Source: Cafeteria roenbergensis (lineage: Eukaryota; Sar; Bigyra; Bicosoecida; Cafeteriaceae). From it: DNA of 64,000 bases. Location: NCBI GenBank assembly GCA_008330645.1, contig VLTN01000058.1, forward strand, positions 62,001-126,000, given 5' to 3'. The position numbers and the translations under genes were made by a program. Positions 26,364-56,177 of the stretch are shown here, in pieces. The notes beneath the pieces were generated by a model. It was not told the origin of the DNA. It ran no database searches and worked only from the letters and a program-made list of their open reading frames with translations. Position 1 is the stretch's first letter. Each line of letters opens with the position of its first letter.

Positions 26364-26734
26364 CGGCGCTGGCATGGTTGTCTGAGTGCATGGTCCGCCC
26401 CGCAAGGGCTCCCTGCCTGCGCCCAGTGGCCTCGTGGCTCGCCACCACTCGCCCAAACGCAGCGCTGCCACGAACGTTCGTCACTGGGTTCACCCGGAGG
26501 CGCGGCAAGCGCCTTCCTGCTGCATTCGCCGGCCTCGCCCCGCGGCAAACGGTGGCTGCTCTGCAGGCAGCAGTTGGTCGCGCGCAGCGACCCGGGGCCT
26601 CGCACGTCCGCTCGGCAGCAGCGCGAGCGCGCCGCTCCCCGTCGGAGTTCCTGGGGCAAAGGGGTGCTGCGGGGGCTTGGGAGGCGCTCGAAGCACAGTC
26701 GCCCGGGCCGGCAGGCTGGAGCAGCAAAACCGGC
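26364..26734. other. spacer between UROD and the large unknown gene
   Basis: No gene. GTGCATG at 26386-26392 belongs to the UROD 3' flank and is preceded by ATGGTTGT. The frame of the next gene is open throughout this spacer, but I see no reason to extend it. Confidence 0.45.
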
Positions 26735-29700: not shown

Positions 29701-31426
29701 AGTGCTACGCGGACCACGGACCCCTGCGGAAATCGACGCCGTGGCTACAGCTTCAACTGCAACTGCAGTGGCTCTGCGAGGCACAAGTCCCCCCGCTCAC
29801 CGCGGGAGGCTGGCGCCGCCGTCAGCGGACCGCGGTGGCAGCGGCCGCCACCAGTCAAGGGGGCCGCCGCTGGCGGCGTCATCGCTGGCGGTATCCCCGC
29901 CCCCAGCTAGCAGGCACGCTCTGCGCGCCAGCGCGGCACCGTCCGTGAGCCCCAGCGCGCCCCCGCTGCCGCCACCGCTGGCCGCGGGAATGTCAGCGCC
30001 GGCGCCGCTCACGGGCAGCTCGGTGCGGGCGATGGGTGGGCAGAGGTCTCTTGCAAGGAGCGCTCGACCGTCAACCGTGCCGTCAGCTGACGTCCAGGCG
30101 CTGGTGGACTCGCAAGTGGCCAGAGCCATGCGCGGAGGCGGCGCGGCGGAAGACGCCGTGGCGGCCATTCTAGCCGACGGGGTCCCGTTGCAGCAACGAC
30201 ACCTCGACAAGTGGGGGTTGCGGCTCGCATCGCCGGGGCAGGGCCGGTCCGGCGCTCGCGTGGTCAGAGCCGTCTCTCCGCAGCGAGAGTCCAACGGCGC
30301 TGGTGCCGGCAGAGCCGGAATCCGCGGCCCGCTTTCAAGAGACGCTCATGCGGCAGGGTTCAACGGGCAGCCCGGCGCGGACGATTCAGGCAGAGCCAAG
30401 CCGAGGAGGCATGCTCCCTCGAGCGCGCACGGGGCTATCGCCCCTGGCGGCAGTGCGAGAACCCAGGCCGCGCCTGCAGTCAGTGGCCCGGCGGCTGGCG
30501 AGGCGGCGGCTCAAGGCGTTTCGGCTGGCGAGGCGGCGGCTGGTGGCGCTCCCAGCCACGGTTTGAATCCGCTTGAGCAGGCGCACAACGGCTCTGCCGA
30601 TACCGACGACGTCGACAGAGTTGGCTTCGCGGATGCCTCGGGCGACGACGGCAGCGACGAGGACCTCTTCTCACCGTCACCACCCCCCCTGCCCGCCACA
30701 CCCGTCGTGCGGCGAGTGGGCGTGGCGCCGCTGGTGGAAGGGTCCACCCCAGAGGCGGCGCCCGAAGGCCGCTCAGCTGCGCACCCCGCTGCGTCGGCGG
30801 GGAAGTGGGACGTCCCTCGGCCAGTGAGCGATGCGACCCCCAGACCCCCGGCAGAGCCGTCGACACCCAGCGGAACCGCTTCGCGTCGTGTTGTCGTTCG
30901 CTCTGTTGGCAGCCCGTCGCCGGCGGCGTCGGCACGGAGGTCGTCGCTGCGCACAAGACCAGCGGTTGGCAACGTCCCGGCGCCAGCAGGCTTTGCCCCT
31001 GGGACGAGGGCGCCGGCGCCATCAAGCCACGCGGCGGCGACGCCGTTGGCAGCGGCGTCAGCGCCGGGGCCGCGTCGCGTCAGCGTCAGCGCGAGCCCGT
31101 CGCGGCCCGAGCAGCGCCCAGCCCCGCGTCGTTTTACCCAGCCGCACCAGCCGGGGGCGGACAGGCCTCAGCGTAGCCCGGCCAGGCGGCAGCACGACGG
31201 GTTTGATGCCGTCGCAGGGAGCGCTCGGGCCGCAGCGGGGGCGGCGCTGACTGCCTCCCGGCTGGAGCAGACGCTGCTCGGCGGCGGATCGGCCCTCCTG
31301 GGACAGCGCTCCGCGGTGAAGGTCCGGCGCTCTCCCGCTTCGGGACGGGTGGGCGCCGGCGGCCCTGGAGGAGCCGCCGGCCCCGGCAGCAAGCCCGCTG
31401 GTTTCGGCGCCCCGTCGCTTGCGTGA
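26735..31426 (+). CDS. large low-complexity protein of unknown function
   Basis: A single open frame of 1,563 residues from the ATG at 26735 (MSRGGSLAEANPPMS). The protein is mostly disordered and rich in Ser, Arg, Ala, Pro and Gly. Two short coiled coils are visible: about residues 210-260 (ELARAERRAQELAAEASVAE) and about 345-375 (RRRAEAEARRWRLEAAALRG). RS-rich and SP-rich blocks follow (RRRSISRDSSARRARGRASS). A possible folded segment lies near residue 1115 (DVQALVDSQVARAM). I do not recognise a family. Persistence of a 4.7-kb frame supports coding, but high GC makes long chance frames common, and unseen introns or a different start are possible. Its stop is only 75 bp before the TFIIF alpha start. 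Confidence 0.55.
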   Translation: MSRGGSLAEANPPMSLEQLARDPHIGTPTAHSPEPAWPLQPLAWGGEPRESDRPWRVADDLSAVRTELTALSRRVADGFGASTGATGGGAPQLPLYRGVRPMGAGGWPLHSPPLAVRPLRSRSKGAGLDPATPVGQRPRAGDGASAAGPPGGVAAGDSALPDGGSAAKGGSAGDSGSAASRRALNDTVPGASPATDSSSAAGAEADGASEDEEDEALERELARAERRAQELAAEASVAERFREAELAKQRAEEEVRMLRRASAEPAAPGAGGLPGGAGGQEDGAGWGDEVGGPIALAVGSGREARAPRTPSPREGVVSRGRRRSISRDSSARRARGRASSPAASEAGSVGPAAAAARRRAEAEARRWRLEAAALRGELLGAPAAGAGHGPGAWGRGDPGHGGFMAAVSALPGGASGYQSGPSVSRGSSVERRDCDSDGRADGDWRRRRSGAGRRSRDRPDVVVTGGRATYRRGEAFGGDSDTFERPSHSRFRHGAGTDAAGSDSSGGGRRQPSAGRLLVPLERAGRGQASGRLALPGPAAAAAAGSAGSAAPWSGPRLAQSRVATRSLSSAHRRSRRLSFSQAAAAAAASSAARAATSAAVAAVSPPNGTASLRPQRGPSGRGHSSPPRTGHRASQSPHPELQLRRQHRSRSPRHCSGTGVSPGRHGDIRSSAGSGRSRESTSFGERQALPARPIQRITSLSYDRETAQRAGDGVAASGLRNRRLDRRSLERRHPRVRGLPAPAAATDPAPPQRGTQLLGSAAPQPTPWQSWFCPPGAAAPSQAALAPGPAAFDQPAEDVTADVAQRASDEHLSHRQSRLSDAVAELRLSAPGSSREAEALRFLATALPAHGAAMAEGWGGASARGESEFGEADMQSLMQSHRGQQSSWEGASWGVGGSPSRRKPAPGRGSGWGGEAGRGSAGAAAGMAGAAAAAGVAAAARAAQARGPSEGLLRRRLSSDRPTTASDGSPGPNVSPTHQQSLDRPTSRVLRGPRTPAEIDAVATASTATAVALRGTSPPAHRGRLAPPSADRGGSGRHQSRGPPLAASSLAVSPPPASRHALRASAAPSVSPSAPPLPPPLAAGMSAPAPLTGSSVRAMGGQRSLARSARPSTVPSADVQALVDSQVARAMRGGGAAEDAVAAILADGVPLQQRHLDKWGLRLASPGQGRSGARVVRAVSPQRESNGAGAGRAGIRGPLSRDAHAAGFNGQPGADDSGRAKPRRHAPSSAHGAIAPGGSARTQAAPAVSGPAAGEAAAQGVSAGEAAAGGAPSHGLNPLEQAHNGSADTDDVDRVGFADASGDDGSDEDLFSPSPPPLPATPVVRRVGVAPLVEGSTPEAAPEGRSAAHPAASAGKWDVPRPVSDATPRPPAEPSTPSGTASRRVVVRSVGSPSPAASARRSSLRTRPAVGNVPAPAGFAPGTRAPAPSSHAAATPLAAASAPGPRRVSVSASPSRPEQRPAPRRFTQPHQPGADRPQRSPARRQHDGFDAVAGSARAAAGAALTASRLEQTLLGGGSALLGQRSAVKVRRSPASGRVGAGGPGGAAGPGSKPAGFGAPSLA

Positions 31427-36446: not shown

Positions 36447-38179
36447 TCACGCCCACAGGACGGCAACACTCGCGGGCTCGACTGAGAAATCAAACGTGCC
36501 CGCAGCCGACCGCTTGACCGAAGTTGTCGTCCGCTGGCCGCTGGGAGTTCCGTCAGTGGTCCCATCCCAAGTCAGGCCCACCCACACCAGGCCGGACTTG
36601 GCCGTGGCGCCGCCCGGCGCGCTGAGTGTGCCCAGTTGCGCCGTGTCGGGCTCGCTCGTTTCGAGCTTTGACAGCGAAACAGCCGCAGGTCCCGCGGCGC
36701 TCGGGTCCTTGTGGATCACCACAAATACCGTCTTCCCGACTCCCTGCAGGGCCCAGACACGTACCTGCGAGTTCGTCGTCTGAGTTACGTTCACGCTCAA
36801 CAGGCGACTCTCCGCGGCGGTGACTTCCGAAAACACGCGCATCGCGTAGTACAGCGGCTGCACCGTGGGCGGCATGCCCGCGGAGGTGTTGGCAAACTTG
36901 ATAGGGGGGTAGATGCCCCTCGGCCCGCCATGGAAGTTGACCATGGACGCGTTGATGCTGGCCATTTCGAACAGAAAGTCGAGCGCCCACAGCGCCGAGC
37001 CGAGGACGTCCGACACGCCCTCTTGGCCGCCGCACGCCACGCTGTTGGACTCGCCGATGACAAAGGGCACGCCCGCGGCCGCTGCACCTTCGCTGAAGGG
37101 CCGCATCTTGTCGGCCTGCCCCGATGACGCCTCTGGCGCCAGCAGGTCCTCGAGGGTGGTCGTGTGCCCGTCGCAGTGCGACAGCGGGTAGCGGTGGTAC
37201 GAGATGTCGCGCAGCAGCGCCGCCTGCGAGCTGGCGTAGTCGGCGAAGGCAGCCTCGTTGAACGTCCCCTGAAAGCAGCACCACGTGGCTCCGCGGATGG
37301 TCTTCGCGGGGAGGCCGGCAGCGGTGATGGCGGCGGCCGCGGCCTCAAACTCGGCCTTGTACTGGCTGTAGTCGTAGTCCGGCTTGCGCAGCCCGTTTTG
37401 CGCAAACAAGTCGCACTCGTTGCCTATCGACACGGCGTGGATGTACGACCAGCTAATGCTGTTGTTGATGGCCAACGCCTCGGCTGCGGGCCAGGCGAAG
37501 TCGTGTCCTCGGATGAAAGACAGGTCGGGGACGAAGGCGGTGCGGCCGCCCATCGCGTTGCCGAAGCCCTGGTATGACTTCAGGTCCGCAGCTGTGATGT
37601 TGTACGTGATCTTGTACTGCGGCGGCAGGGCCTGGTGGTCGGGGTTCCACACGGACTCGTCGGCACTGTTCCCCCCGGCGCGGACGACCGTGGGCGCTTG
37701 CAGCTCGGAATGGTGAAGCCCTCGGATGAGGTTGACCAGAGCCAGCCGGGGGGGGTCGGGGGACTTCCCGATCATCTCAGTCGCGTCCGGGACCTCGATG
37801 GAGAAGCCCACGAGGTTTGTCGGGACCGCCCTGCGGTGGGCGGCAATGCGCGAGTCAGCACGGGACAGTCTTGTCTCCATCGCGTGCACGGGCGTGTGCC
37901 ACGCCACGAGGCGGGCCGCCCATTCGCCACGAGCGGTCGCCCCGCCGCGCCCCCTTGCCCGCAAGCCACAAGGAGTGTCAACGCAACGAATCGGCGTCCG
38001 GGGGCGGACGCGGCGGGAGCACCTCTGTGCTGGCGCGCAGCGCGGCCAAGTCGCAAGCCAGCTCACTGCACCGGCGCAAGGCCCATTGCAACCGCGACGA
38101 CAGTGTCGGCGGGCGCCGCCGCACCGGCGAGGCCGGCCCCGAGCACCGTCGCAGCCAGGACTGCGGTTGACAGGACCAT
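36447..38179 (-). CDS. secreted glycoside hydrolase family 79 (heparanase/beta-glucuronidase type)
   Basis: Exons 38179-38067 and 37830-36447 join in phase (CA|G) to 498 residues. Exon 1 encodes a signal peptide (MVLSTAVLAATVLGAGLAGA). The (beta/alpha)8 barrel shows VGFSIEV, VRAGGNSADESVWN, VSIGNECDLF with the likely acid/base Glu176, ISYHRYPLSHC, and PFVIGESNSVACGG with the likely nucleophile Glu298, then NFHGGPRGIYPP. A C-terminal beta domain ends VEPASVAVLWA. GH79 enzymes release glucuronic acid or 4-O-methylglucuronic acid from proteoglycans or plant and algal polysaccharides. Several NxS/T sequons fit secretion. Substrate cannot be read from sequence. The neighbour UGDH makes the activated form of the sugar this enzyme would release. 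Confidence 0.8.
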
Positions 38180-38648
38180 GCCGGGCCCCTCCCGGGTGTG
38201 AGGTGTGGCGACTGGCGCTGTCGCCCACAAGTTGACCTGAGCGAATTCTGCAAGCAGAGCGCACGGATTGTCGCCGGCCATGCGGGCCCCTTGCCGGCCA
38301 GCAATGGCTCCCCACGCAAAATTGAGGACGCTTGCCGTGCGCTTGCTGGCCTGCTGGCGCGAGTGCCGCACTCGCTGATGCCGCTTGGGCGAGGCTGCTT
38401 CAGTGTGCTCTTTCGCCGAAAGTTCCTTGCTGCGCGCCCTGAATCGTGGCTCGCACGCACCACCGGCCCAGGAACCCAGCCCCCCCTACCCCCCATATAC
38501 ACACAATCGCCCCGGAAACGCGCACAGCCCCGCGTGCGCGCGTGAATGCGGTTCGCAGCCCCCAGCAGGAGGCGACGAGCTCGCCACGTCGCCCAGCCGA
38601 GCGACGGCCTGAATCCATCGAAGAGGCTTCCGTTTCGCTGCGCGCAGC
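38180..38648. other. spacer between Treslin-like gene and GH79
   Basis: No gene. It must hold the 3' end of the Treslin-like gene and the GH79 promoter, both on the reverse strand. An AT-richer patch (CCATATACACACAATC, about 38500-38515) stands out. Confidence 0.45.
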
Positions 38649-39416
38649 TCACGACAGCGTGCGCCGCGAGTGCCCTGAGGCCAGCCCCCCTTCCTCTGGC
38701 GAAAGGTCGCTCAGCATCTGCTCGACGAACAAGCGCCGCGACACCTCGGCGGCTGCTGCTGGCGAGGAACGGGCGCGCGCGTCGCGGGCGGCGGTCGGAG
38801 GCGCAAACGCGGAGCCCGGCACCACCGGCTCGCCTCCGGTTGCAATCATGGGTGTGCCCTCTACCAGGCCGGGCCTGGCCGGCCTGGAGGGCGTGGCGTT
38901 CGGGCCGGGGACGGCAGCATTAACATCCGAGCCCTGGGGCGCGACTGCCGCCAACGGCGGGGAGGCTGGTGCCTGGCTCTGCCGCTGGGCCTCGCGGAAC
39001 ACATCCGCCGCGCCGCCCCGGCTGACAGCCGAGCCCTCTGCCGGCGGCACGAGGCTGGGACGGATGCGCACGCGCACTGCCCGGGCCCGCACGCCCGAAA
39101 CCACCCCAGCGCGATGCACGGAAGGGGCATAAGCAGCGAAGCTGGCCGTGGCCTGGTCCGCCTGACTCGCCGAGGGCGCCACAGGCGCAGCTGCAAACGC
39201 GCCATGCGGTGCCGCCCCCGATCCAGTGCCGGCAGAGCCGGGACCAGCGCCAGTCGAGCCAGCGGACGAGGACCGCAGCACCAGCCGGGGAGCAAGGCGA
39301 CGCGCGACAGCCGTAGGGGCCGCGCTCGTGGCAGGCGACCGGGCTGTCAGCGGGGCGGCGCTCACTTTGCCCTGGGCGCCAGCAGCCGCGGTGGTGGGCG
39401 CTGCCGCCGCCGCCAC

Positions 39417-39447
<31 letters not shown>

Positions 39448-42400
39448 CCAAGCCTGCGATCGTCCACCCCTGCCCCCCCGTCTCCAACCCCCGCATGCAG
39501 CGAAACTGCGACCACAGTGGAAGGCAGCTCGGGCGTCATCGCGCCGCGAAGCCGCTTCGACGCGGGAGCCAGCCCCGCTCCAGCGCGGCCGCCGGCGGCC
39601 GCCGCGGCGCCGCCACCGCCTTCTCCAAGGCTCGGGAAGTCGCCGGCAAGCCCACCCAGCGACACAGCCTGCCCTGCGCCCGCGGCAGGGTCGCGCTCGC
39701 CACCGTCCCCTCCGCGCAGCCTCACGGCAGCCCGCCGGCCGGATCGCCGCACTGGGCTTGGAGAGAACACGCCAGCGAAAACAGCCGGCCTGGCCGGACT
39801 GGAGGGGCCGCGCAGAGCTGGAGGCTGTGGCAGCTGCAGCGCCTTGAACAGCCTGGTCCCAAGCTCCCCCATGCGCAGCAGCATCGCCTGCCCGAGCGTG
39901 CTCCGCTCCAGCAGCAGGCCCAGAGGCTCCTCGGCCGCTTCCGCGCCAGCCCCGCGCGCCCCGGCGCCACCGCCTCGCTCCCCCCCGGCAGCCCTCTGCT
40001 CCGCCTCGCGAAGCGCGCCTGCCGCCGACGGGAACCCGTCGAGCGCCGGCCGGCCCAGCACCCCGAGCAGCGTCGCCGCAACCTTGGCGCAGGAAGCAGC
40101 CTCCGCCACCCGGGCCTTGGCTGCGTCGGCTCTGCCTCGCTCAACGGCAAACGCGGACTCAAGACACTGCAGCGCCGTCTGAGCGAGGCACAGGCGCAGC
40201 ACCTCTCCCGGGGACGTCAGCGCCCCCACCGTGGGCAGCTCTGCGCTAGAGCCCGAGGCAGCTGCCGGTTCTGAGCCCCGCCTCATCGTCGCCAGCGCCA
40301 GCGACGCCAGGCGACGTCCGGCCGCGGGAACCGCCGCCTCGAGAGAGAGAAACCTCCTCACCACGACCTGCGCCCCGGCTCTGCCCAGGCTCTCTGCTTC
40401 GCCTGCCTCGCCGTCCGACTCGCGCTTACCGGCCTGCGGCTCTGCCTGGTTCCGCTCGCCGGCTGCCTCGCAGGGAGGCGACACCCTGCCAGCAGCACGT
40501 GCGGACCTGACCGCCTTGGAGCGAACTGAGGCCGGCGCCCACGCGATGCCCAGGAGCCGGGCGGTCTCGAGGGCCCTGGCGAGCCGGCGGGATGCTCGAT
40601 CTGCCGCGGGCTCAGCTGGTCGGTGGCCGTCTGAGACGACCGTTGCAGATTCAATGGCGGCAACGGCCTTGTCAAACAACCGGCCGAACACTTCGGCGGG
40701 CTCACGCCACGATCTGGCACGCTCGCTTGCGCCCGACGACGTAGAGAGAGTCCACGACGATGACGAGGACGACGAGGACGACGAGGATGAGGAAGAGGAA
40801 GAGGGTGGGTGCGTCCCCAGCACTGCCGCAGCGTACTCGGCACGTAGCCGCAGCAGCGGCCGCAGGCACACGGCCGGGAGGCGGGAGAGGAACTTGACAG
40901 AGGCCGGACGCAGCTGCGACGGAGTTGTAATGTCCGAGAGCAGCGGGTGGAGCGACGCGCGCTGCGCCCTGCCCTCCGGCATGGCAGCTGCTGCTGCGGG
41001 ACCGGGACCCGCCGTCGTGCTGCCAGCCGCAGCCGATTCCCCGTGATGGGTCCTGGCCACCGCGCCCGCGCTCGCAACAGCCGCGGCTTCGCCAGAGGTT
41101 GGAGCCAACTGGGGCATTGCTTCAACGGCAGGAGGAGGGGTGGCTGGACCGGCCGCAGCCGCCGCGGCGCCAGCGGTCTCCGTCGTCCCAGTCGCTGCCG
41201 GAGCCGCCTGGCCAACCCGGGACCGCTCGGCCGGGCGGCCGGCTGCCGCCTCGGCATCCGCTTCGGAAGCCCGTGCAGCGAGCCACCGCCGAGCGCTGAC
41301 GGCTCCCTTCATGGCTGTTCGGCCGTGCTGAAGCAACGCTGATGCGGCGGAGTGCGCCCACCGCCTGGGAGAGTCCGCACTGGCAAGCGATCCGCGCTGC
41401 AGGTCGCAGCCTCCGTCTTGGGCCGATGCCGCTGCCACCAACGTTGACGATGACGATGCCGATGACGATGACGATGGAGGTGCCAACGTCGCTGCCGACG
41501 TCCGCTGCCAGGACAGCAGCGGGCGCGAAGTGAGGCCGCAGCCGCACGCCACGGCGCGCGTCCCGACCGCTGCAACCTCCGCCAATCCGCCCCCACACCC
41601 TGACAACACACGACCTGAGCCCACTGAGCCCACGCCAAGCAGCAGCAGCGCCTCACACCAAGGCGATGACACGGAGGAAGGCAAGGCCGGAAGGACCACG
41701 GGCTCTGCCGGCTGGCTCCACGTCGCAACCCAGGTGGCTGCTCGATCGCCTTCACCGCCGCCGCCCCTGCCGCTGCCCCTGCCGCCAGCTGCGCTGCCGT
41801 TCGCTCTGGAATCCTCCCGCGCGGCCGGCTCCCGGCCGGTGGTGCAGTCCTCCGCCGAGTCGGGCTCAGAGGGGGTGGCAGCGAGGGCGGCGATGCGGGA
41901 GCGACGGCTGCCGGAGCGACTCTCCCCGGCAGAGCCCCTGCGATCGCTCCGCGGTCCGTCGTGCGAGGCAGAGCCCCGTCGGGATGCCGCCACATGCGCC
42001 AGTCGGACTGCCGCTGACGAGGCTGCCGGCCTGTGGGAGGCGTTGGCTGCCTCTGCCAACAGCGACGCCGAGGACTTTGCGGCTGCTCGCATCGACCTGC
42101 CCGTGTCGATGGGCCCGTGACTGTGCGGTGACGAGCTCGGGACGGGGCCGCCCATCACCGGGCCCGAGCGCGACGCGTCTGCCGCGCTGGCTGCCTCCAG
42201 CGAGGGAGAGCGTGTCGCACCGGCGGCCGTTTCAGAGAGAGGCCCTGCCGCATGAACAGAGTAGCCGGGCCGGCTGTCGGCGCTGGCGAGGCCACTGTAA
42301 GCGCCATCCGCAGAGTCGCCAAGGCTGCTGGCAGGCACCGACCCCGCGACATGGGCCAGCCGGCCAAACGCTGGGCCGAGGGACGAGCCCCAAGCGACGT

Positions 42401-44993
42401 CTGCCGTTGCCGACGACGGGCCCCCCGGGCGGGTTTGCGATGCGCCGCCGAAGCCCTGCCCCGCCGAGGTGCCTGGCGGCGCCGACGCGCCTTCCCACGG
42501 CAGCAAGCTCTCGGCCAGGCCGACGTCGGACGGCGCTGCTCCGTCCGGCAGAGCCGCCCCGGCAGCGTCGAGCGCCGACCATACTCCGAGGCGAGCCCGG
42601 CTCGGCCGGGGCCCCGCCGCGTCCGCCCCGCTGCCCTTTTGGCGAAGGGTCGCCCGCCGGCAGAGCCAGGCTCCCAAACCAGCAGCGGCGCTCACGGCCG
42701 CGCCTGGCGCCCCCGACGCAACGACCTCTGCCCGAGCGATCGACCATCCCGGCGCGCCCTGCGCCACTTGCCTCTGCAGGAGAGACCGCTGCGGCTGGTC
42801 GAGGCATCCCTCCGGCCACATGGGCAGAGCCGGCCCCACTGCAAGCGGCAGCGGGAGCACGAAGCACTGGCAGGCGGCAGGGAATACCAGCGCCCTGCCG
42901 GTGGGAAGCAGCACCAGAGTGCAGTCCGCAGCAGACTCTGCGGCGCCCCGGCCTCCGTCAGCGGCCCCTGGGGACGGCGGGTGCCCTCGCGCGGGCGCGG
43001 CAGTGGGTTCTTCGCTGGCAACCCCGGCGGTAGTCTCTCCGCTGACAGGATCTGCAGCGCGAATGCGCGCGCGCAGCCAAAGGGGCCGAGTCGGCCACGC
43101 CGGAGGAGGGCCCGAGAGCGTCAGCTGGCCGTGGCGTGCCCACGCCGCTGCCGTCGCCGTGGCCTCAGCGCCGCCTCCCAGAGCGACGCCCGGCCACTCT
43201 GGCTCGATTGCCAGGAGGGGCGGGGCCGAGCGCCGGGTGCCGGAAGCCGGGGGAGAAACAAGGCCTTCCAGCTCAGTAGACCTGAGCGGAGACGCAGACG
43301 GCAGAGCAAACAGAGCCAAGCCGCTTGACCCAGCGTGGCGGTGGCTGCCCAGCTGCGACAGCACCGGCGTCAGGTCCAGCTGCGCCGTGGCTGCGGGCTG
43401 CGAAGCCGCCGCTGCCTCGTCGGCATCGGGCTCGCATGCGGGTGCAGGCGCAGGCGCGTCCGACAGCGCAGCCGCGAGGCTGCGGGCGGCGGCGCGCGAG
43501 GCGCCCAGGGCGGTGGCCGGAGGCCATGCAGCAAGGTACGCCGCTACGGACGCCTCCGCCCAGAGCAAGCCGCCAGCGAGGCGCCTGAGAGACTTGACGA
43601 GGGCCGCGAGCGGCGGAGAAACTATGCCCCGATCAGCTGACCATCGAAATGCGGCCGGCAGCTCAGGGCCCGTCTGAGGCGGCGCTGCGCCGGGCGCCGA
43701 AGGGGGGGGCGGAGGGCGAGCTGCCGCTTGCCCGAGATGCGGCCGCGAATCAGCGGGGCTGTCAGAGTCAGAGCTGCTGTCGGAGTCACCGCCAGAATCT
43801 TCTGCATAGTCTCCGGCAGAGTCAGCCTTGCGCGGAGGGGGCGTCGCCTCCGCGGCCCGGCTTGCGCCCACCACAGGCGCCCACGCCACAGGCGCCACTT
43901 CGCCGGCAGTGTGCGCCCACCAGACGGCCACGCCTTCCCTGGAGCACGTGGCCGCCAGCCCGGCCAGGGACGCGGGCACGGGCTCCAGCCCGCCAAGGGC
44001 AGTTGCATCCGCGAGCACCAGCACCACCTTGCGCCTCTCGGGTGGGGGCAGCGCTGCTGTTACCCCTCCCCTCCCCGCGGCCGGCGCCGCGCCCAGCGTC
44101 ACCCTCGACAGGTCTGCCATGGAGTGCCCCCACGCCCCGCCCGCCGCCGCTGCAGCCACGCTATTCCGAAGCGCAGACGCCGCCGGGGCGCCCGCCTTCC
44201 CGTCCCGGGAAGCCGAACCGCCTGCACTCGCCGGTACGGCCCCCCTGGAGCCGCCGGCAGAATCGTCCAAGTGCCGTGTGGCGCCGTTGAGGAGGCGGCC
44301 GAGACGCACGCCGTCCGCCGCGAAGGCCGCCAGGGACGCCGGGGACAAGGGGCTGAGCGGCGACTGCAGGAAGTCCCTCCAGGCGGCTTGCGGCGTGGCT
44401 GCCGAATGCGCAGCGCCGCCGCTGCTCGTCGGACGGCGCCTCGCACAATCGCCGGCTTGGGCCGGGAGCGGGCGGCTGCGCAGCTGGTCCCACGATCGGG
44501 CGGACACCTGCGGTCGCAGAGAGCGGCGGAGTTGCTCCGCCGACGCCTCGGCGCCGGCGGTGGACCGGAAGAAACTATATCTGCGGACAGTCAAACATTG
44601 CAAGGGCGGGGCGGCAGCTACGCGCGCTTGCTGCGGAAACGAGGGCGCGGCGTGCGCGCGCCAGCCACTCATGCAACAGGAAACCGTTCCTGGCCACGGG
44701 CCTGCTCGGGCGCGACGGGCAGGCGGCAAGCCGCTGGGCTCGCGCGGAGCCCTGGGAGGTCGCTGGCGGCCGCTGCGCGAGGCCCAGCAGCAAGGGCCAC
44801 GAGGCGCACTGAGGCGCGCTCACCTCCAGAGGAGGCGCTCGTGCGGGTCGTTGTCCAGCGCAGCCAAGGCCTCGTGCAGACGGAGACGCAGGCGGCGGAG
44901 CGCTCGGCCACACCGTTGCCCAGCAGCCGCCGCGCCCGGCGCGTGCGCGGCCTCCAGAGAGGCGCAATCCACCACCACGTGCAACAGTGGCAT
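38649..44993 (-). CDS. Treslin/TICRR (Sld3-family) replication-initiation protein candidate
   Basis: Exons 44993-44824 and 44580-38649 join in phase (AG|A) to 2,033 residues. Exon 1 starts MPLLHVVVDCASLEA and a helix; the junction gives LLWRYSFFRSTAG, then SARSWDQLRS. This order matches the Treslin N-terminus, where a VMLLLD strand is followed by VHWAFKFFDSQG and SRSWEDFEEEL. Further strands fit the same vWA-like fold (KVVLVLADATALGG, EGVAVWWAHTAG). About residues 1465-1640 form a helical block (EVLRLCLAQTALQCLESAF, ending GTRLFKALQLP) placed like the Sld3-Treslin domain, which binds Cdc45. Ser/Thr-Pro sites with basic residues follow (SPSPVRRSGR). Most of the rest is disordered. Treslin/Sld3 loads Cdc45 on MCM under CDK control. 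The assignment rests on local similarity and domain order, not on a search. Confidence 0.6.
39418..39447 (+). repeat. (GAC)10 trinucleotide repeat in coding sequence
   Basis: Ten uninterrupted GAC units on the forward strand are read as a run of ten Ser codons (TCG) in the Treslin-like protein on the reverse strand. A second GA/GAC-rich patch lies at about 40762-40800. Confidence 0.9.
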
Positions 44994-45409: not shown

Positions 45410-46639
45410 CTAGCACGAAAACTCAAACTCGGAGAGAGCCGCAGTGCTCAGCTGCGGCGGCGCCCCCGCCTGATCGAGCAGCATAAGCAAGTCCCAGCCC
45501 GCCTCGCCCGTTTCGGTTCGGAAGTTCCAAAAGAAGCTCCCCTTGCCCGGCCCCGCGCCGCGCCCTGGACCCCCCGCGAAGGAGCCGTCCCACGCGCCCA
45601 GCTGCGCGACGAGCATGGCGCGCAGCCACGACGCGGCTCCTCCCTGAAGACGCCCCCCCGGCGGATTGCGCTTGGTTACGGCGTTGGACCACTCGCCAAC
45701 CACCACCCAGTCAGCGTCGGTTCGCCCGGCCACGCCTGGGCCGTCCTGGTCGCACACGAACCGCACCGTATCCCACGCCGTCATGTTGGTGGTGGGCCCT
45801 CCGAACGCGTGATACAGATGCGAGTCCAGCAGCACGTCGGTGTACTGAGGCGGCGCAAGCACGCCGACCCATGGTCCGGAGCCCGCGAAACCGTCGCTCA
45901 CCCAGATGGTTCCGTTGAACCCCTGCTCGCGAACTGCATCGTACGCGCGCACGTAAAAGTCTCGCAGCAGGTCGTAAGTGACGGGCCCCCCCACGGCGGG
46001 CGTCCACGGCTCGTTCAGGACCTCGATGCCTGCAACCGCGCCGGCCATGCTGGCGTTGCCCGACGCGTCCCAGGCGACCACGCGGCGCGCGATTTCGGCC
46101 AGCACGGCCACGGTACGGTTGACATTGCCGGGCCTGGGCCACTGGATGTCCCCCGTGCGACCGGAGTTGTCATGCCCGTTTTGCGAGCCCGGCGCCCCGT
46201 GCAGGTCGAGCACGGCCCGCATGCCGTGGCTCTTGAGCCACCCAACAGCGCGCTCCAGGTACCACCAGCCGCCTGCGGGAAGCGGCTCGGTCGAGTTGCG
46301 GTCCACAATCCAGTACCCGAGCGGGATCCGCGCGTACTGCAGGCCGGCCTCCGCCAGGGTTGCGATGTGCGCCTCCGTCAGCCATGTGTCCCAGTGCTCC
46401 TGCAGCGCCGGCCCGCACTGGTCGCGGCCGACCTTTTCGCAAAACTGCCACTCGCCGGCACCTGCTGCCACGCCGTGCTTGGCAAACACGGACGGCGACA
46501 GCCAGCTCTCCAGCACCAGCCACCCGCCGAGGTTCACGCCGCGATACACGCCATCGGCATCCAGGCTTGCGGGTCCGGCGGCGGACACGGCGGCAGCGCA
46601 CGCCAGTGCCGCCGCGAAGGCGAGAGAAATCCGGGGCAT
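45410..46639 (-). CDS. secreted GH5 exo-1,3-beta-glucanase
   Basis: Single exon, 409 residues, ATG at 46639. A signal peptide (MPRISLAFAAALACAAAVSA) precedes the barrel. Family blocks are GVNLGGWLVLESWLSPS, ARIPLGYWIV, VLDLHGAPGSQNGHDNSGR, GIEVLNEPW with the acid/base Glu210, SHLYHAFGG, and VVVGEWSNA with the nucleophile Glu316, then SFFWNFRTETG near the end. This is the EXG1-like GH5 subfamily that releases glucose from beta-1,3-glucans such as laminarin or chrysolaminarin. In a protist it may digest algal storage glucan or remodel its own. Several N-glycosylation sequons are present. It diverges from the cathepsin C gene. Confidence 0.9.
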   Translation of the reverse strand: MPRISLAFAAALACAAAVSAAGPASLDADGVYRGVNLGGWLVLESWLSPSVFAKHGVAAGAGEWQFCEKVGRDQCGPALQEHWDTWLTEAHIATLAEAGLQYARIPLGYWIVDRNSTEPLPAGGWWYLERAVGWLKSHGMRAVLDLHGAPGSQNGHDNSGRTGDIQWPRPGNVNRTVAVLAEIARRVVAWDASGNASMAGAVAGIEVLNEPWTPAVGGPVTYDLLRDFYVRAYDAVREQGFNGTIWVSDGFAGSGPWVGVLAPPQYTDVLLDSHLYHAFGGPTTNMTAWDTVRFVCDQDGPGVAGRTDADWVVVGEWSNAVTKRNPPGGRLQGGAASWLRAMLVAQLGAWDGSFAGGPGRGAGPGKGSFFWNFRTETGEAGWDLLMLLDQAGAPPQLSTAALSEFEFSC

Positions 46640-47118
46640 GCTTGCAGCTGGGCGGGGCAACTCGATTCCCGCTTCCAGGCCGACTCCGGCTGCGGTGACA
46701 AGGCTGGCTCTGGTTGTCGCTGGCTAGCGCTCCCTTCGGCGGGGAGCGGGGCGCAGGGACCTGCTGGCTCGCTTGTGTGTGCACCGGCGTGGCGAGTTCC
46801 CAAGCTGCAGGTTTAATGCGGCTGCCAAAGTGCAACCCCTGGCCCACGCTCAGTCGCTCGGCTCAGCTGCCTCGGGAGCGGAGCCACCGCGTGGAAAACA
46901 GGTGGTGATGCGCCTCCCCCCGACCCAAAGCGGCCGACAGGGCCCGAATGCAGGCAGGAAGGCTGGAACCGCGCAATCGGGCTGGAGGCGTTTGCAGAGC
47001 AAGCCTCGGCTCTGCTCGGAGCAACGCAGACTGCCGCACGCAGCGGCCGCAAGCACCAGCGGCGCGAGCAGCGCCCGGTGGGCTCGGGGCCGCGCAGGAA
47101 GCGGCAGGCCAGGCAGTC
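46640..47118. promoter_or_regulatory. divergent promoter region, GH5 / cathepsin C
   Basis: 479 bp between the start codons of two secreted, probably lysosomal or extracellular hydrolases, one for glucan and one for protein. No CCAAT or TATA box is evident. No gene is seen. Confidence 0.45.
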
Positions 47119-50217: not shown

Positions 50218-53079
50218 TCACGCACGGTTCATTCGCCTCACAATTAGCAGTGCCATCCCCAGCAGCACCAGCGCTCCAAACCCGATGGCGCCCACTGCCG
50301 CCCACCACCACACACCGCCAGCTCCTCGAGACTCGCTCGCCCCCTTGTCGCCCCCGCCGCTGCTGGTGCGTCCAACTCCATTGGCCGCCGCCGTCGTCGC
50401 CGCCTGCCCTGTGCTCTTCCCACCCCTGCGCCTCAAACCGCTGCGCCCTGTGCCAGCTGCATTCCGTGCCTCCGGCCGCACGCCGCCCGGCCCGACAGCG
50501 CCAGCGCCACTGTCACCGCCACTGCCACCGCCACTGCCACCGACACTGCCACCTCCAGCAGCACCACCAGCGCCGGCCCTGCTCGGCTCTGCCGCGGCGT
50601 GCGCTGCGTCAGACGCGCGAACCTCGAGCCCATCCTTCGCAGCAGCCGTCTGCGTGGCTCCGCCCGCCGCGGAGCAGGTCTCGTCGCAGTCTAGCAGCAC
50701 CAGGTACGACATGTCCATGGCTCTGCCGCACGCCTCACGGGCTGCCTGGGCCCGCCCACAAGCCCACTGTTCCGCCCGCTTACCGCACCTGCACCGGGCA
50801 TTCACGCTGCGCTGGCAAGCCCCGGGCGCTGCCCCCGGGCACGGCCCCGGGTGACACCTCTCCGAGCAGCCGTGAGCGCACTTGGGCAATGCCCTCCCGC
50901 ACGTGGCGCCGCAGCGCAGTTGGGACTCCGCAGCCGTGACGGCTCGCTCGGAGAACTCGGCAGGAGCGGCCGTGGCGCCAGCTGCCGACCTCGCATCCAG
51001 GGCCACTGCCACAGGCGATCGGCCAAGCACCTTAAGCAGAGCCGACGGGGCTGCAGAGCCGTGCCCGGCATTGCTCGCCGCCAAGGCGAGGGCCGTGGCT
51101 GCGGCTTCCCCGGTCACGCGGCCATCACCACCGGGTCCGGCACTTTTCAGCAACAATGCCTGCGCCTCGGCGCACGCCATCGCAACGGTTTCCCGGCCGC
51201 AGAAGCATCGCAGCGGCACAGCGTCGGCGACGTCGCACTCGCAGTCTCCTGGGTGGCAGAGCCCGCCGTTGGCAGAGCATGCGTGCCCGCACAGTCTGTC
51301 CACTTCACACCGCCTGGAACACTCCCCGCAGGGTGACGCCGGCGCGTGGCAAGCCCTGCTGCAATGGTGGCGGCCGCAGGGCAGGGCCCGGCCGCACGGC
51401 GCAGGGCAGGCCCAGAGGCGAGGAGCGGAGCACGGCTGCGAGCGGGAGGAGTGCCCCCCCACGCAGGGCACGGCCACAGGGACGGCGCAGGGGGGGCAAG
51501 GTTCCGGGTGGTGGCACGTGCGCTCGCAGGGGTGGCTGCAGCGGGGCCGAGGCTGCCCGCAGTCGGCCACGCACGGGGGGCAGGGTCCGGCGTGGCAGAG
51601 GTGGTCGGGGGCGGGGTGGCGGCATGGGGCCTTGCGCCGGCACATCTCCGGGCAAAACGGCGTTTCCGCCGTGTCGGACCCGCACGGCACCGTGACGACC
51701 GTTGCACCGCACGCGCAGCTGAGCCGGAGCTTGGCCGGGCAACGCGGGCACTTGCCGGGATGGCAGCGGCCCTTGCAGACGTGCACTCCGCATGCGAGAC
51801 GCCGCCCGCACTGCTCCTGGCAGAGCCGGCACTCGCCGTCCCCGCCGGGGCAGCAGCGCCGCCCGCACCTGTGCCGCCCGCAGGAGGCCAGCCGAGCGCA
51901 CCGAGTGGCGCACCGGAACTCGGCTCTGCCGGGCGGCCTGAGCGCTTGCTTGGCCCCGCAGCGGCAGTAGCAGCGCACCTTGGGGCCAACTCCGGCCAGT
52001 GCTCCGCCTCCGACGTCGCCTTTGCTGCCGGCGTCGCCGTCGCTCGCGGTGTCGCAGTCGCAGGCGCTGTCGCCGTCACTACCGGCGTCGCCGTCGCTGC
52101 CAGCGTCGCCACCCGCGCGGTGCCCCCGACCTGCTCTGCCGTCCTTCTCGCCGGCCCCGCTGGGGCGAGCGGGTTCCGTCGCACCAGTGCTGGGGCCTCC
52201 GGGATCAGTCGGCTGGCCCGCTTCGGCGCCGCCCCTGCCCTCCCCCGCCGCGCTTCCGCGCGCCCGCTCAGAGCCCGGCCGACCTCCGCTGCCCGGCGAC
52301 TGCCCGGCGTCTGCCGGGTCGGCCTGCACTGGGCGGCGCGCGGAGGGCAGCGCCTCGAAGCGAGAAGCAGCCGCCGCTGCGTCCAGTGCGCTTGTTCGGG
52401 CCATCGCCACGGCAGCAGCCTCCGAGAGGGCAGAGGCCCCCGTGGAGAGCGCCGCCGCGTCTGCGCGGGCCTGTGCGCACTCCGGTCGGGGGCAGGGCGG
52501 GCAGGGCCCGGCGTGGCACGGGCGCCGGCATGCGTGCGGGCAGGCTGGCAGAGACCGCAGGCATGGCGAGGAGCAGCAGTGCGGGTCCAGCCAAGTGTCC
52601 ACCGCGGGGCGGCGCGTAGCCCCGCAGAAGCACGAGTACTGCGACGGGTATTCGTCCGAGCGGTACTCGGCGCCGCAGCTGGGACAGCCGAATGAGCCGC
52701 CCGGGAGGCCCAGCCCGCGCGCGGCCGCGGACGACGGCGCTACCCACTGCTGCACGCACGCGAGGTGCGCCAGACAGAAGCACTCGTCGCACTGCCAGAC
52801 CTCGTCGTGCCGGGATGGAGCGCCGTGGTCGCACAAGGGACAGCCGAGGGGCCGCGCGCTCGGGCACTTGAGCTGACGTCGAACCGCTCGGCGGCCCGGC
52901 GGCGGACGGTTGCCCGCGTGTATTGCCGGCGCAGATGTTCGGGAAGCTGCTGCCGCGCGAGACGCTCCAGGGGCAACGCCAGAGGCGGGCGCGCGCCTGG
53001 GCGGCCCTAACACCGCCGCCATGGCCGCCGCTACGGCCGCACTGTCGCCGCGGCCGCGGCCCCTGCCTCGCCCGGCCAT
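50218..53079 (-). CDS. NFXL1-like NF-X1-type zinc-finger protein with C-terminal membrane anchor
   Basis: Single exon, 953 residues from the ATG at 53079; the frame is open upstream but has no earlier ATG. A RING/PHD-like cluster comes first (CPLCDHGAPSRHDEVWQCDE, CFCLAHLACVQQW, SFGCPSCGAEY). Then come many NF-X1 zinc-finger repeats of the form C-H-x-G-x-C-x-x-C (PCHAGPCPPCPRP, GRCHPGKCPRC, TCHHPEPCPPC, RCHPGPCPG). An acidic Gly/Asp/Ser linker interrupts them at about residues 200-340. The C-terminus has one membrane segment (VGAIGFGALVLLGMALLIV) followed by RRMNRA. RING plus NF-X1 repeats suggest a ubiquitin ligase; the C-terminal anchor is the feature of NFXL1 rather than nuclear NFX1. It shares a 201-bp divergent promoter with POLA2. 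Confidence 0.8.
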   Translation of the reverse strand: MAGRGRGRGRGDSAAVAAAMAAVLGPPRRAPASGVAPGASRAAAASRTSAPAIHAGNRPPPGRRAVRRQLKCPSARPLGCPLCDHGAPSRHDEVWQCDECFCLAHLACVQQWVAPSSAAARGLGLPGGSFGCPSCGAEYRSDEYPSQYSCFCGATRRPAVDTWLDPHCCSSPCLRSLPACPHACRRPCHAGPCPPCPRPECAQARADAAALSTGASALSEAAAVAMARTSALDAAAAASRFEALPSARRPVQADPADAGQSPGSGGRPGSERARGSAAGEGRGGAEAGQPTDPGGPSTGATEPARPSGAGEKDGRAGRGHRAGGDAGSDGDAGSDGDSACDCDTASDGDAGSKGDVGGGALAGVGPKVRCYCRCGAKQALRPPGRAEFRCATRCARLASCGRHRCGRRCCPGGDGECRLCQEQCGRRLACGVHVCKGRCHPGKCPRCPAKLRLSCACGATVVTVPCGSDTAETPFCPEMCRRKAPCRHPAPDHLCHAGPCPPCVADCGQPRPRCSHPCERTCHHPEPCPPCAVPVAVPCVGGHSSRSQPCSAPRLWACPAPCGRALPCGRHHCSRACHAPASPCGECSRRCEVDRLCGHACSANGGLCHPGDCECDVADAVPLRCFCGRETVAMACAEAQALLLKSAGPGGDGRVTGEAAATALALAASNAGHGSAAPSALLKVLGRSPVAVALDARSAAGATAAPAEFSERAVTAAESQLRCGATCGRALPKCAHGCSERCHPGPCPGAAPGACQRSVNARCRCGKRAEQWACGRAQAAREACGRAMDMSYLVLLDCDETCSAAGGATQTAAAKDGLEVRASDAAHAAAEPSRAGAGGAAGGGSVGGSGGGSGGDSGAGAVGPGGVRPEARNAAGTGRSGLRRRGGKSTGQAATTAAANGVGRTSSGGGDKGASESRGAGGVWWWAAVGAIGFGALVLLGMALLIVRRMNRA

Positions 53080-53280
53080 GCTGCAGCCACTGCTCCGTGC
53101 GCAGGGTACCCCTTCTATTGGCGCGCGGCCTGTGGAGCGCGGGGCTCGAGCGCTCGCACCCGCCCACCGCTCTGCCCGTTCTGGCCAGCACGTGGCCAGG
53201 CGCGAACCTGAATTCAAACGCGGGCGCCGGTCGTGGCTCGACCACTCACCTGCGCGCCCAGGGTCCGGTGCAGAGGAGCG
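53080..53280. promoter_or_regulatory. divergent promoter, NFXL1-like / POLA2
   Basis: 201 bp between start codons. It contains a reverse CCAAT (ATTGG, 53117-53121) running into GCGCGC; ATTGGCGC is one mismatch from an E2F site, which would suit a DNA replication gene. Confidence 0.5.
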
Positions 53281-56177
53281 ATGCCCCTCACAGCGTCGAG
53301 CATTGCCAGCGCTCTCGCTGAGCGCGGCCTCGATGCCAAGCCCGACGTGCTGGAGCGGTGTGAGCTGTCGCAGCCGAAATCAAACTGCGCGGCGCCGCAA
53401 CGCGAGCAAGCTCCGCCCTTGGCCGCCCCCCCCCCCGTCGCCACCCACGCTGGTGCGCCGCACCGGGCGGTTTGTGTTGCCTCTCTCGCAGGCGTGCTGC
53501 TGGCGTCGGAACTTAGGGTGGACGCCGAGGGGCTTGCCGACCAAGCCGAGGCCTCTGCCATGGCGCAGAAGGCTGACTCCGTGACCTTGAAGCTCCTGGA
53601 CAGCATGCGTGCAGCTGCCGTGAGCTTTGTGGTCGTGTCCTTTCGCCCGCCCACGTGGGCCTCACGCCAGGGAGAGGTGAAGGGTCGGGGGAACTTTGGT
53701 GTCGTGCCCACGGTTGCGGCGAACCGCAACCTTTTGAGCGCGCAGTCGCGCCCAGCCCCCTCCACACCGCCCGGCGCTCCCGTGTCGGCCCTAGCCCGCC
53801 CCGCAGAGCCGCCGTGCTCGCCCGTCCCAGAAGCCGCAACGCGTGGTGCGCGCTGACGTGCGCAGCGCCGTCGCTGTGGACTCGAGCTTCGAAGCGATGT
53901 ACGGCATGTCGGCCGCTGCAGCGCTTCCCAGCTCCCCCGGTGCTGCTGGGGGCTTTTCGGCCGTCAGCAAGGCGGCCCGCGTCGCTCCGTCGACCCCTGG
54001 CAAGCAGGACCCGCGCAAGCGCTCCCGCTCCGAGTTCGCCGACGCTTCCCCGCTCAGCAAGCGGCCTGCACCCGCCACCCCGGCCAGCGCGGCCACCGCC
54101 GCGACTGCGGGGGCGTTCTCCCCGGCGTCTGGCCCCGCGGACGCCGCCACCACGCCGGTCCGCCGCTTCGCCACACCTGGGTCGTCCCCCCCGACGCCCC
54201 TCTCAGCGTACGCCAGCCGGACCACGTCGGGTCAGACCACGGTCACCTACGCCGGTGCCGCTGCGCCAGCAGCCGACGTCGGCGGCCGCTTCGTGGCGCT
54301 TGACGACGCCGAGGCTCGCGGCACTGCCGCCGACGCCGTTCCCGCCGGCGACCCCTCGGCCGGCTGCTGGGCTGCCGGGGCGGACGGCGAGGGCGGGAGC
54401 CTCGTTCCCCGCCTCGTAGGGCAGGACGAGGCTCTCTTCGGGGCGGGCTCTGCCACTTCGAGCAGGAAGGCGTTCTTCACCACCATCGAGGACGTCGCCG
54501 CGTCTCTCGACCAGCGCTGCGACGTCCTCGGCAGAGCCGCTGCAGGGTCGGCGGCGTCCGCGTTGTTCCCCGTGAAGGAGCCGTCCCAGGACGAGGTCAC
54601 CGTGGCTGGAAGGATCGTGTGCGACGTGGAGGGGGAGGGGCGGCTGAACCCTGCCTCGGTGCTCCTGGAAGGGTCCAGGAGGACGTCGGGCGGCGACAGG
54701 GTGCAGCTGGACCTGATGGACTGCAAGGCCTTCGCCCTCTTCCCGGGCCAGGTGGTGGCAGCGCGGGGCATGAACGCCACGGGCAGCCGCATGGTGGTGC
54801 AGTCCGTCGCCCACGGGGCCCGCTTGCCGTTGCCGCGGTCGCCAGTGGCCTACCTGGAGGCGGAGGCTGCCCGCTGCGCCGCCAACGGCTCGGCGCCCAT
54901 GCGGGTGTGGGCCGCCGCCGGCCCCTACAGCCTCGCGTCCGACCTCGAGTACCAGCCGCTGGATGACCTGCTGATTGAGGCCACGCAGAGCGAGCCCCCC
55001 CCCGACGTGCTGGTGCTGTCCGGGCCCTTCGTCGACGCGGACCACCCGCACGTGCGCGCAGGACGCATTCGCGTTCGCAACTCGGAGGGGCAGTTCGTGG
55101 CCCTCGCCGCACAGGACCTGTTCATGTACAAGGGTGAGCCGCCCGACGGACGGACCCAGCCCCGCTCCCGGTGACAGATGCTGCCACAGTGGCAGCGAAA
55201 GTGTGCTGCTCACACGCTGGGGCGGTCCTGCTTGGCAAGCCTCCTCCAGCCCAGCGCCCGATCGCCCGCCCCGCCTCCCGCTTGTCCCACACCGCCTTCC
55301 CGACCCTGCGGCCCGCCCTCCCGCCCGATCGCGCAGTTCTGCAACTGATGAGCTCGGCTCTGGCACAGCCCGGGTGCGAGCGGATGCGGATCGTGTTGGT
55401 GCCGTCGACCCGCGACCTGACAGGCCTCTTCACCTTCCCTCAGGCTGCGTTCTCCAGCGGCCTGCTCGGATCCATCCAAGACGAGTCGGTTCGGTCTGTG
55501 AGCAGCAAAGCGCACTGCTCGCGCCCCGCGCGCCAATCGCCTGCGGGCGTGGCTTCCTCCACTGTCGCTGCCTGACAGCGGCCCGTGAACCCCCTCCCCC
55601 GCCTCCCCCGCCTCCCCCGCCTCCCCCACCTCCCCCGCCTCTGCCCTGCCCATTCGCCTCGCAGCGCATCACGCTGGTCCCCAACCCTGCCACCTTTTCG
55701 CTGGGCGGTGTTGTCTTCGGGACGACGTCGGCTGACCCGCTGTTCGACATCAACAGCGACTACACCGACAGGTTCCTCGTCAAGCCGCACCCGGACCGCC
55801 TACCGCGCCTGGCGCAGCACCTGCTCGAGCAGCGGTCGTACTACCCTCTATTCCCTCCCTCAAAGTCCACGCCGCTCGACGCGCGGGCCTATGAGCACGT
55901 GGAAATGCCCGTCACCCCGGACGTGCTGCTGCTGCAGTCCAAGCTCGCGGCGTTCGTTGCCGACATCGACGGCTGCCTGGTGGTGTCGGGCGGCACACTG
56001 AGCAAGAGCAATGCGGCGGGGACCTTTGCGCGCATCGAGATTAGCCCGATGACGACGGCGATGATCAAGCCGGAGCCTGCCGAGGACGCCGCCGCGGGAG
56101 CCGCGGCCGCGGCAAGTGCGGGCGTGGCGCTGCACCGCGTGCCCGAGCGCGCTCGCGTGTCCGTGGTGCGCCTCTGA
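53281..56177 (+). CDS. POLA2: DNA polymerase alpha subunit B (primase-associated)
   Basis: Exons 53281-53359, 53492-53619, 53807-55133, 55337-55497 and 55665-56177 join in phase to 735 residues. The N-terminal helical domain (SSIASALAERGLDAKPDVLE, LLASELRVDAEGLADQAEA) is followed by a Ser/Thr-Pro-rich linker (STPGKQDPRKRSRSEF, ASPLSKRPAPATP), typical of CDK-regulated POLA2. The OB-fold region has VTVAGRIVCDVEGEGRLNPA and FALFPGQVVAARGMN. The inactive phosphoesterase core reads VLVLSGPFVDADHPHV, VLVPSTRDLTGLFTFPQ, SYYPLFPPSK, MPVTPDVLLLQSKLAAFV, and AGTFARIEI near the end. The protein tethers primase to polymerase alpha at replication origins. Intron 4 carries a 9-bp C-rich repeat as its pyrimidine tract. 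An alternative exon 3 acceptor at 53831 would also keep the frame. Confidence 0.9.
55591..55642 (+). repeat. 9-bp CCTCCCCCG repeat, intron pyrimidine tract
   Basis: About five to six copies of a 9-bp unit form the polypyrimidine tract just upstream of the last POLA2 intron acceptor (55664). Confidence 0.85.

What the first reader, a model, noticed from the sequence alone, without database searches (positions are those of the whole stretch)
38649..44993. A Treslin/Sld3-family replication factor in a GC-rich protist
The two-exon model joins exactly in phase and places LLWRYSFFRSTAG and SARSWDQLRS directly after an opening strand and helix, the same order as VHWAFKFFDSQG and SRSWEDFEEEL in vertebrate Treslin. 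A later helical block is positioned like the Sld3-Treslin domain, and Ser/Thr-Pro sites lie C-terminal to it. Treslin/Sld3 is among the fastest-evolving origin-firing factors and is rarely annotated outside animals, plants and fungi. If right, this gives a deep-branching sequence for the family.
Basis: partly seen in the sequence, partly recalled or inferred. Interest (0 to 1): 0.75.

Follow-up and report, generated by a model that had tools for sequence, protein, structure and literature searches.

The report
Possible divergent Treslin-like protein, unproven
A large single-copy gene in a GC-rich marine flagellate starts with a short stretch that looks like the start of Treslin, a protein that helps switch on DNA copying, but the rest of the protein gives no detectable match, so it is a lead and not an identification.

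Summary
The gene model holds. A 170-nt first exon and a 243-nt GTGAGC...CCGCAG intron join in phase to a stop-free exon, giving 2033 aa. The genome resembles Cafeteria strain BVI in size and contig count.

The Treslin reading rests on one block of 46 residues (aa 53-98, RLLWRYSFFRSTAG...SARSWDQ). Set in register against Pfam Treslin_N, it adds 13-14 bits. None of 45 computed shuffles reached that (5 of aa 1-98; 40 of aa 53-98), but the best added about 9. I infer a chance near 1 in 1000 for this block, before allowing for how it was picked.

Little else supports it. Direct Pfam scans show no Treslin_N, Treslin_M, Treslin_STD or Sld3_STD. The helical block does no better than shuffles against Treslin_STD. 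AlphaFold models are too poor to use. Ser/Thr-Pro sites are not clearly enriched. An unrelated stretch of the same genome scores higher against human Treslin in plain alignment (84 against 51).

Verdict: a plausible divergent Treslin-like candidate at slightly under even odds, not filed as a member.

The parts
44824..44993 (-). Exon 1: ATG and aa 1-57 (last codon split); possible vWA strand 1 (LLHVVVD) and helix 1, ending LLW
   Evidence: In-phase join; coding-like GC by codon position. Similarity to Treslin_N of this exon alone: +0.6 bits only
44581..44823 (-). Intron, 243 nt, GTGAGC...GTCCGCAG; holds an in-frame TGA in the donor
   Evidence: open segments of Cdc45 in the same genome end at GTGAGC/GTGAGG
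38649..44580 (-). Exon 2: rest of aa 57 to aa 2033 and stop
   Evidence: No internal stop; 11-26 stops in each of the other five frames of the region; single full-length match in its genome for aa 58-161
44457..44580 (-). Exon 2 part of the Treslin-like block (YSFFRSTAG...SARSWDQLRSRPLPAQ); the block begins at RLLW in exon 1 (aa 53-98)
   Evidence: +13.8 and +13.3 bits in register against PF21854; best of 40 shuffles about +9
43521..44456 (-). aa 99-410: rest of a possible vWA-like region, with a long Ala/Ser/Gly-rich insertion
   Evidence: Order of WRD..SP, KVVLVLA and GVAVWW parallels human Treslin by eye; profile tests do not separate them from shuffles
   Evidence: AlphaFold2 all-helical but pLDDT 42; no Treslin_STD signal
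38652..39830 (-). aa 1641-2033: low-complexity C-terminus with 10 Ser/Thr-Pro sites, three of CDK type (aa 1651, 1665, 1953)
   Evidence: not clearly enriched

Best explanation
The gene most likely encodes a very divergent, single-copy Treslin-like origin-firing factor of a bicosoecid flagellate: an N-terminal vWA-like domain (the region called CIT in animal and plant Treslins), a middle part that would bind an MTBP/Sld7 partner, a helical block that would bind Cdc45, and a disordered CDK-phosphorylated C-terminus that would bind a TopBP1/Dpb11 protein, so helping load Cdc45 on MCM at S phase. Shown: the gene model and the block similarity. Inferred: every functional step, from what is known of Treslin/Sld3.
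For: Block aa 53-98 gains 13.3-14.4 bits against Pfam Treslin_N in register, above 5 of 5 shuffles of aa 1-98 and 40 of 40 shuffles of aa 53-98; against recalled human Treslin 39-90 it is reached by 24, 66 and 1 of 5000 shuffles with BLOSUM45, BLOSUM62 and PAM250. The recalled human sequence is itself a Treslin by Pfam (329.6, 202.7 and 229.2 bits for N, M and STD). With long gaps allowed, aa 1-640 against human 1-430 is reached by 7, 3 and 1 of 300 shuffles at three gap settings, and by 17, 6 and 3 of 300 local shuffles. No paralogue and no better Treslin candidate in the genome by profile. Cdc45, a partner of the pathway, is present.
Against: No direct Pfam match of any Treslin or Sld3 domain. 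STD: chimera gains -0.3 and -0.6 bits, no better than shuffles; plain alignment 24, reached by 950 of 1000 shuffles. M: 231 of 500 shuffles reach the score. Rest of the vWA region not separated from shuffles. A chance stretch at G000 C31 scores 84 in plain alignment, above this gene's 51, and the window was not listed in the genome-wide search with human Treslin. With standard gaps 2 of 108 ORF slices of the window also reach 51. MTBP not found. AlphaFold unusable.
Confidence: 0.45

Rival explanations
1. An unrelated, fast-evolving, mostly disordered protein whose Arg/Ser/Trp-rich N-terminus resembles Treslin by chance; the reader picked the best-looking stretch from memory.
For: Strongly biased composition (22.7% Ala, 12.0% Ser, 11.2% Gly). 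Shuffles of the block reach about +9 bits, and a scramble typed by hand +6.5. An unrelated stretch of the genome scores higher in plain alignment. Other domains have no signal.
Against: The block beats all 45 computed shuffles, keeps both motifs at near-native spacing, and lies at the very N-terminus where Treslin carries it.
Confidence: 0.42
2. Another vWA-plus-beta-barrel protein of the same superfamily, such as an MTBP-like or Ku-like protein, not Treslin itself.
For: PMC8807876 (abstract and section 7) reports that Treslin, MTBP and Ku70/80 share a vWA plus beta-barrel N-terminus; the order of strand, helix, strand fits the superfamily.
Against: No MTBP or Ku family in direct Pfam scans, and the SARSW motif is matched to Treslin_N in particular.
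Confidence: 0.08
3. The long frame is not a gene but a stop-poor stretch of GC-rich DNA.
For: Weak third-position GC and flat codon preference, one antisense frame scoring as high; Markov simulations reach 1488 aa.
Against: No internal stop against 11-26 in each other frame; coding-like exon 1; consensus splice sites joining in phase; the NFX1-like ORF has equally weak bias.
Confidence: 0.05

Closest known systems
Treslin/TICRR (Pfam Treslin_N PF21854, Treslin_M PF15292, Treslin_STD PF21855)
   Same: W..FF block and SRSW motif at similar spacing near the N-terminus; large size; CDK-type sites near the C-terminus
   Different: No direct profile match to any of the three domains; no STD or M signal; long low-complexity insertions
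Sld3 (Pfam Sld3_STD PF08639)
   Same: Only the proposed helical block
   Different: No match in the genome at E up to 10; Sld3 has no CIT/vWA region (PMC8807876, passages)
MTBP/Sld7 and Ku70/80
   Same: Shared vWA plus beta-barrel order is possible
   Different: No profile match

Membership tests
Treslin/TICRR | Treslin_N (CIT, vWA) profile match | tested here: inconclusive
   No direct match at E up to 10; one 46-aa block gains 13-14 bits in forced register
Treslin/TICRR | Treslin_M (Ku-like beta-barrel) match | tested here: not met
   No match in exon-2 ORF at E up to 1 or in the genome at E up to 0.001; alignment at chance level
Treslin/TICRR and Sld3 | Sld3-Treslin domain (STD) | tested here: not met
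   chimera and alignment no better than shuffles. Distant STDs may be beyond these profiles
Treslin/TICRR | vWA fold in the N-terminal region | tested here: inconclusive
   Single-sequence AlphaFold2 on a read-through that includes the intron: pLDDT 39.6, pTM 0.22; no fold search run
Treslin/TICRR and Sld3 | Two CDK sites C-terminal to the STD that bind TopBP1/Dpb11 | tested here: inconclusive
   Three [ST]Px[KR] sites after aa 1640, 0.7 expected, 29 of 1000 shuffles; binding not testable
Treslin/TICRR | Partner MTBP/Sld7 in the genome | tested here: inconclusive
   MTBP_N and MTBP_C not found at E up to 10; no control genome rang, so absence is not shown
Treslin/TICRR | Required for origin firing; binds Cdc45 | not testable with these tools
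   Needs experiment; Cdc45 gene present

The most novel reading that the evidence does not exclude
A true Treslin orthologue in a bicosoecid stramenopile that keeps the N-terminal vWA (CIT) region, which would put that region outside animals and plants and support its presence in the last common ancestor of eukaryotes.
Probability: 0.4. Interest if true: 0.5.

Novelty: new member of a known kind. Interest (0 to 1): 0.3.

Why it matters
PMC8807876 (passages) says the CIT region is conserved in animals and plants and absent from fungi, and argues that it was lost in yeast. A stramenopile Treslin with a CIT would support that from a third major lineage and show how far the protein can diverge. 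If it is only a chance resemblance, it is an ordinary lineage-specific disordered protein.

Tried and rejected
Pfam on the exon-2 ORF, the spliced aa 1-504 and 1-173, and the 404-aa helical block: no Treslin, Sld3, MTBP or vWA match. Sequence search of the PDB with aa 1-410: none; with recalled human Treslin 1-1002: one weak hit to Rap1, E 0.76, so no Treslin chain was found to compare with. tblastn against phages with aa 1-101: none.

Own-genome search with recalled human Treslin 1-244: a single hit at C31, E 0.31, lacking FKFFDS and SRSW and lying where several frames are open beside a transporter-like ORF; I take it as chance. It adds 0.0 bits in the chimera test.

C-terminal tail SRRLFVEQMLSDLSP against human RRNLFNQELLSPSK: looked alike to me, rejected; 260 of 2000 shuffles reach it, and 76 of 2000 against the whole recalled sequence; for the whole C-terminal region 26 of 500 do.

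Two-sided profile tests: the W-SP block scored 273.3 against 266.2-272.4 for 4 shuffles; the KVVLVLA strand 284.0 against 273.6-287.6 for 4 shuffles, that is, no signal. vWA remainder: +2.2 against -0.9 to +0.7 (3 shuffles) and +2.8/+3.8 against +2.3 and +4.0 (2 shuffles).

Relatives in viral contigs and genome contigs: none confirmed; both are unlikely places for a protist gene. Fold search was not run because both models were below pLDDT 43.

Full report
WHERE IT IS. The window is G000:C58:62001-126000 in a genome of 36,303,456 bases and 167 contigs. Cafeteria roenbergensis strain BVI is listed with 170 contigs, 36,327,047 bases and 70.1% GC (PMC6972860, passages); the window's 2-kb steps run from 66 to 74% GC. 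I infer that strain or a near relative; no marker gene was checked (the rRNA search failed). Later papers in the listing call the species C. burkhardae.

THE GENE. Exon 1 (44993-44824), a 243-nt intron with GTGAGC donor and CCGCAG acceptor, and exon 2 (44580-38649) join in phase to 2033 aa. The reading frame has only the donor TGA and the terminal stop; the other frames have 11-26 stops. Exon 1 looks coding by phase, the stretch upstream does not. Codon bias of exon 2 is weak and does not single the frame out from one antisense frame, but a neighbouring NFX1-like ORF is as weak in third-position GC. Open segments in the Cdc45 locus of this genome end at the same kind of donor. A genome search with aa 58-161 returned the gene itself (E 5.9e-62) and 8 weak matches, the best at E 0.015, so I see no paralogue.

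DIRECT TESTS OF THE NAME. Pfam holds Treslin_N, Treslin_M and Treslin_STD; a human TICRR sequence recalled from memory hits them at 329.6, 202.7 and 229.2 bits, and its CDK sites fall at T969 and S1001 as published (recall checked by position; site numbers in PMC8807876 passages are 669 and 1001 in one legend, while 969 is from recall). The window protein hits none of them. Whole-genome searches with Treslin_N, Treslin_STD, Sld3_STD, MTBP_N and MTBP_C at E up to 10, and with Treslin_M at E up to 0.001, found nothing anywhere, and the control genomes did not ring, so absence is not shown. Cdc45 is present in four pieces on C14, best E 2.0e-28. One BRCT ORF of the PTCB-BRCT type is on C67; six neighbouring ORFs scanned had no match, so TopBP1 is not shown.

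REGISTER TEST. HMMER's filters drop weak matches, so I set pieces of the window protein next to genuine human sequence and read the change in Treslin_N score. Human 85-200 alone: 180.4 bits. With window aa 1-98 in front: 194.8. With aa 53-98 only: 194.2. Five shuffles of aa 1-98: 180.3, 186.2, 181.8, 181.5, 179.9. The C31 chance stretch: 180.4. With a short anchor: baseline 63.3, aa 53-98 76.6; best of 40 shuffles E 4.2e-20, about 72.6 bits by scaling. Cutting the block shows that both halves in register matter: without the SARSW half +1.8, SARSW half alone +5.1. The native human segment gives 151.2 bits, so the gain is 13 of 88 possible bits. Extrapolating from the shuffles I infer a chance near 1 in 1000 for this block.

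OTHER DOMAINS. Against Treslin_STD the helical block gains -0.3 and -0.6 bits; shuffles gain -0.6, +3.9, +6.1 and -1.5, -1.5, -1.4. Plain alignment to the STD scores 24, reached by 950 of 1000 shuffles, and to the M domain 38, reached by 231 of 500. The remaining vWA strands do not stand out. By eye the order VVVD, helix, W..FF, SARSW, W..SP, KVVLVLA, GVAVWW, GG.L follows human Treslin. With cheap gaps the aa 1-640 alignment is reached by 7, 3 and 1 of 300 shuffles at three settings (17, 6 and 3 of 300 local shuffles); at standard gaps by 20 and 32 of 300. For aa 1-410, 2, 0 and 1 of 108 ORF slices of the window score as high at three settings; the 108 include this gene's own unspliced ORF. 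AlphaFold2 without an alignment gave pLDDT 39.6 and 42.3, too low to interpret.

LITERATURE. PMC8807876 (abstract, passages, section 7) gives the Treslin architecture: vWA (CIT), Ku70-like barrel (M), STD, TopBP1-binding region; CIT in animals and plants, not fungi. PMC6377148 and PMC9219753 were seen as passages only. Three searches (20, 20 and 15 listed) showed no title on a stramenopile Treslin; that is not proof of absence.

WEIGHING. The genome should hold some Treslin/Sld3, no other candidate turned up, and the N-terminal block fits in position, spacing and score. But the defining STD and M domains were tested and not met, so I do not file it as a member. I put a divergent Treslin-like factor at 0.45 and chance resemblance at 0.42. 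The novelty label refers to what it would be if right.

Noticed in passing
window 53795-55174 (+): DNA polymerase alpha subunit B (POLA2): DPOA2_OB E 3.1e-27 and DNA_pol_E_B E 8.1e-8.
   Followed up: no
window 9195-12014 (-): Phosphotransferase (APH) domain fused to an acyl-CoA dehydrogenase in one frame, like animal ACAD10/11 (name recalled).
   Followed up: no
window 50218-53379 (-): Cys-rich repeats that look like NFX1-type zinc fingers by eye, with a C-terminal hydrophobic segment; no Pfam match at E up to 1.
   Followed up: no
window 26153-31426 (+): 1757-aa open frame, low-complexity with a short coiled-coil-like stretch; no Pfam match at E up to 1.
   Followed up: no
window 45410-46723 (-) and 36447-38399 (-): Glycoside hydrolases of family 5 (Cellulase, E 1.1e-5) and family 79 (C-terminal domain, E 4.8e-7) flank the gene.
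   Followed up: no
L003 3319-3630 (G000 C31:411318-411629): Chance stretch aligning with human Treslin 1-105 at 31% identity, E 0.31, without the key motifs; a useful warning for GC-rich genomes.
   Followed up: yes
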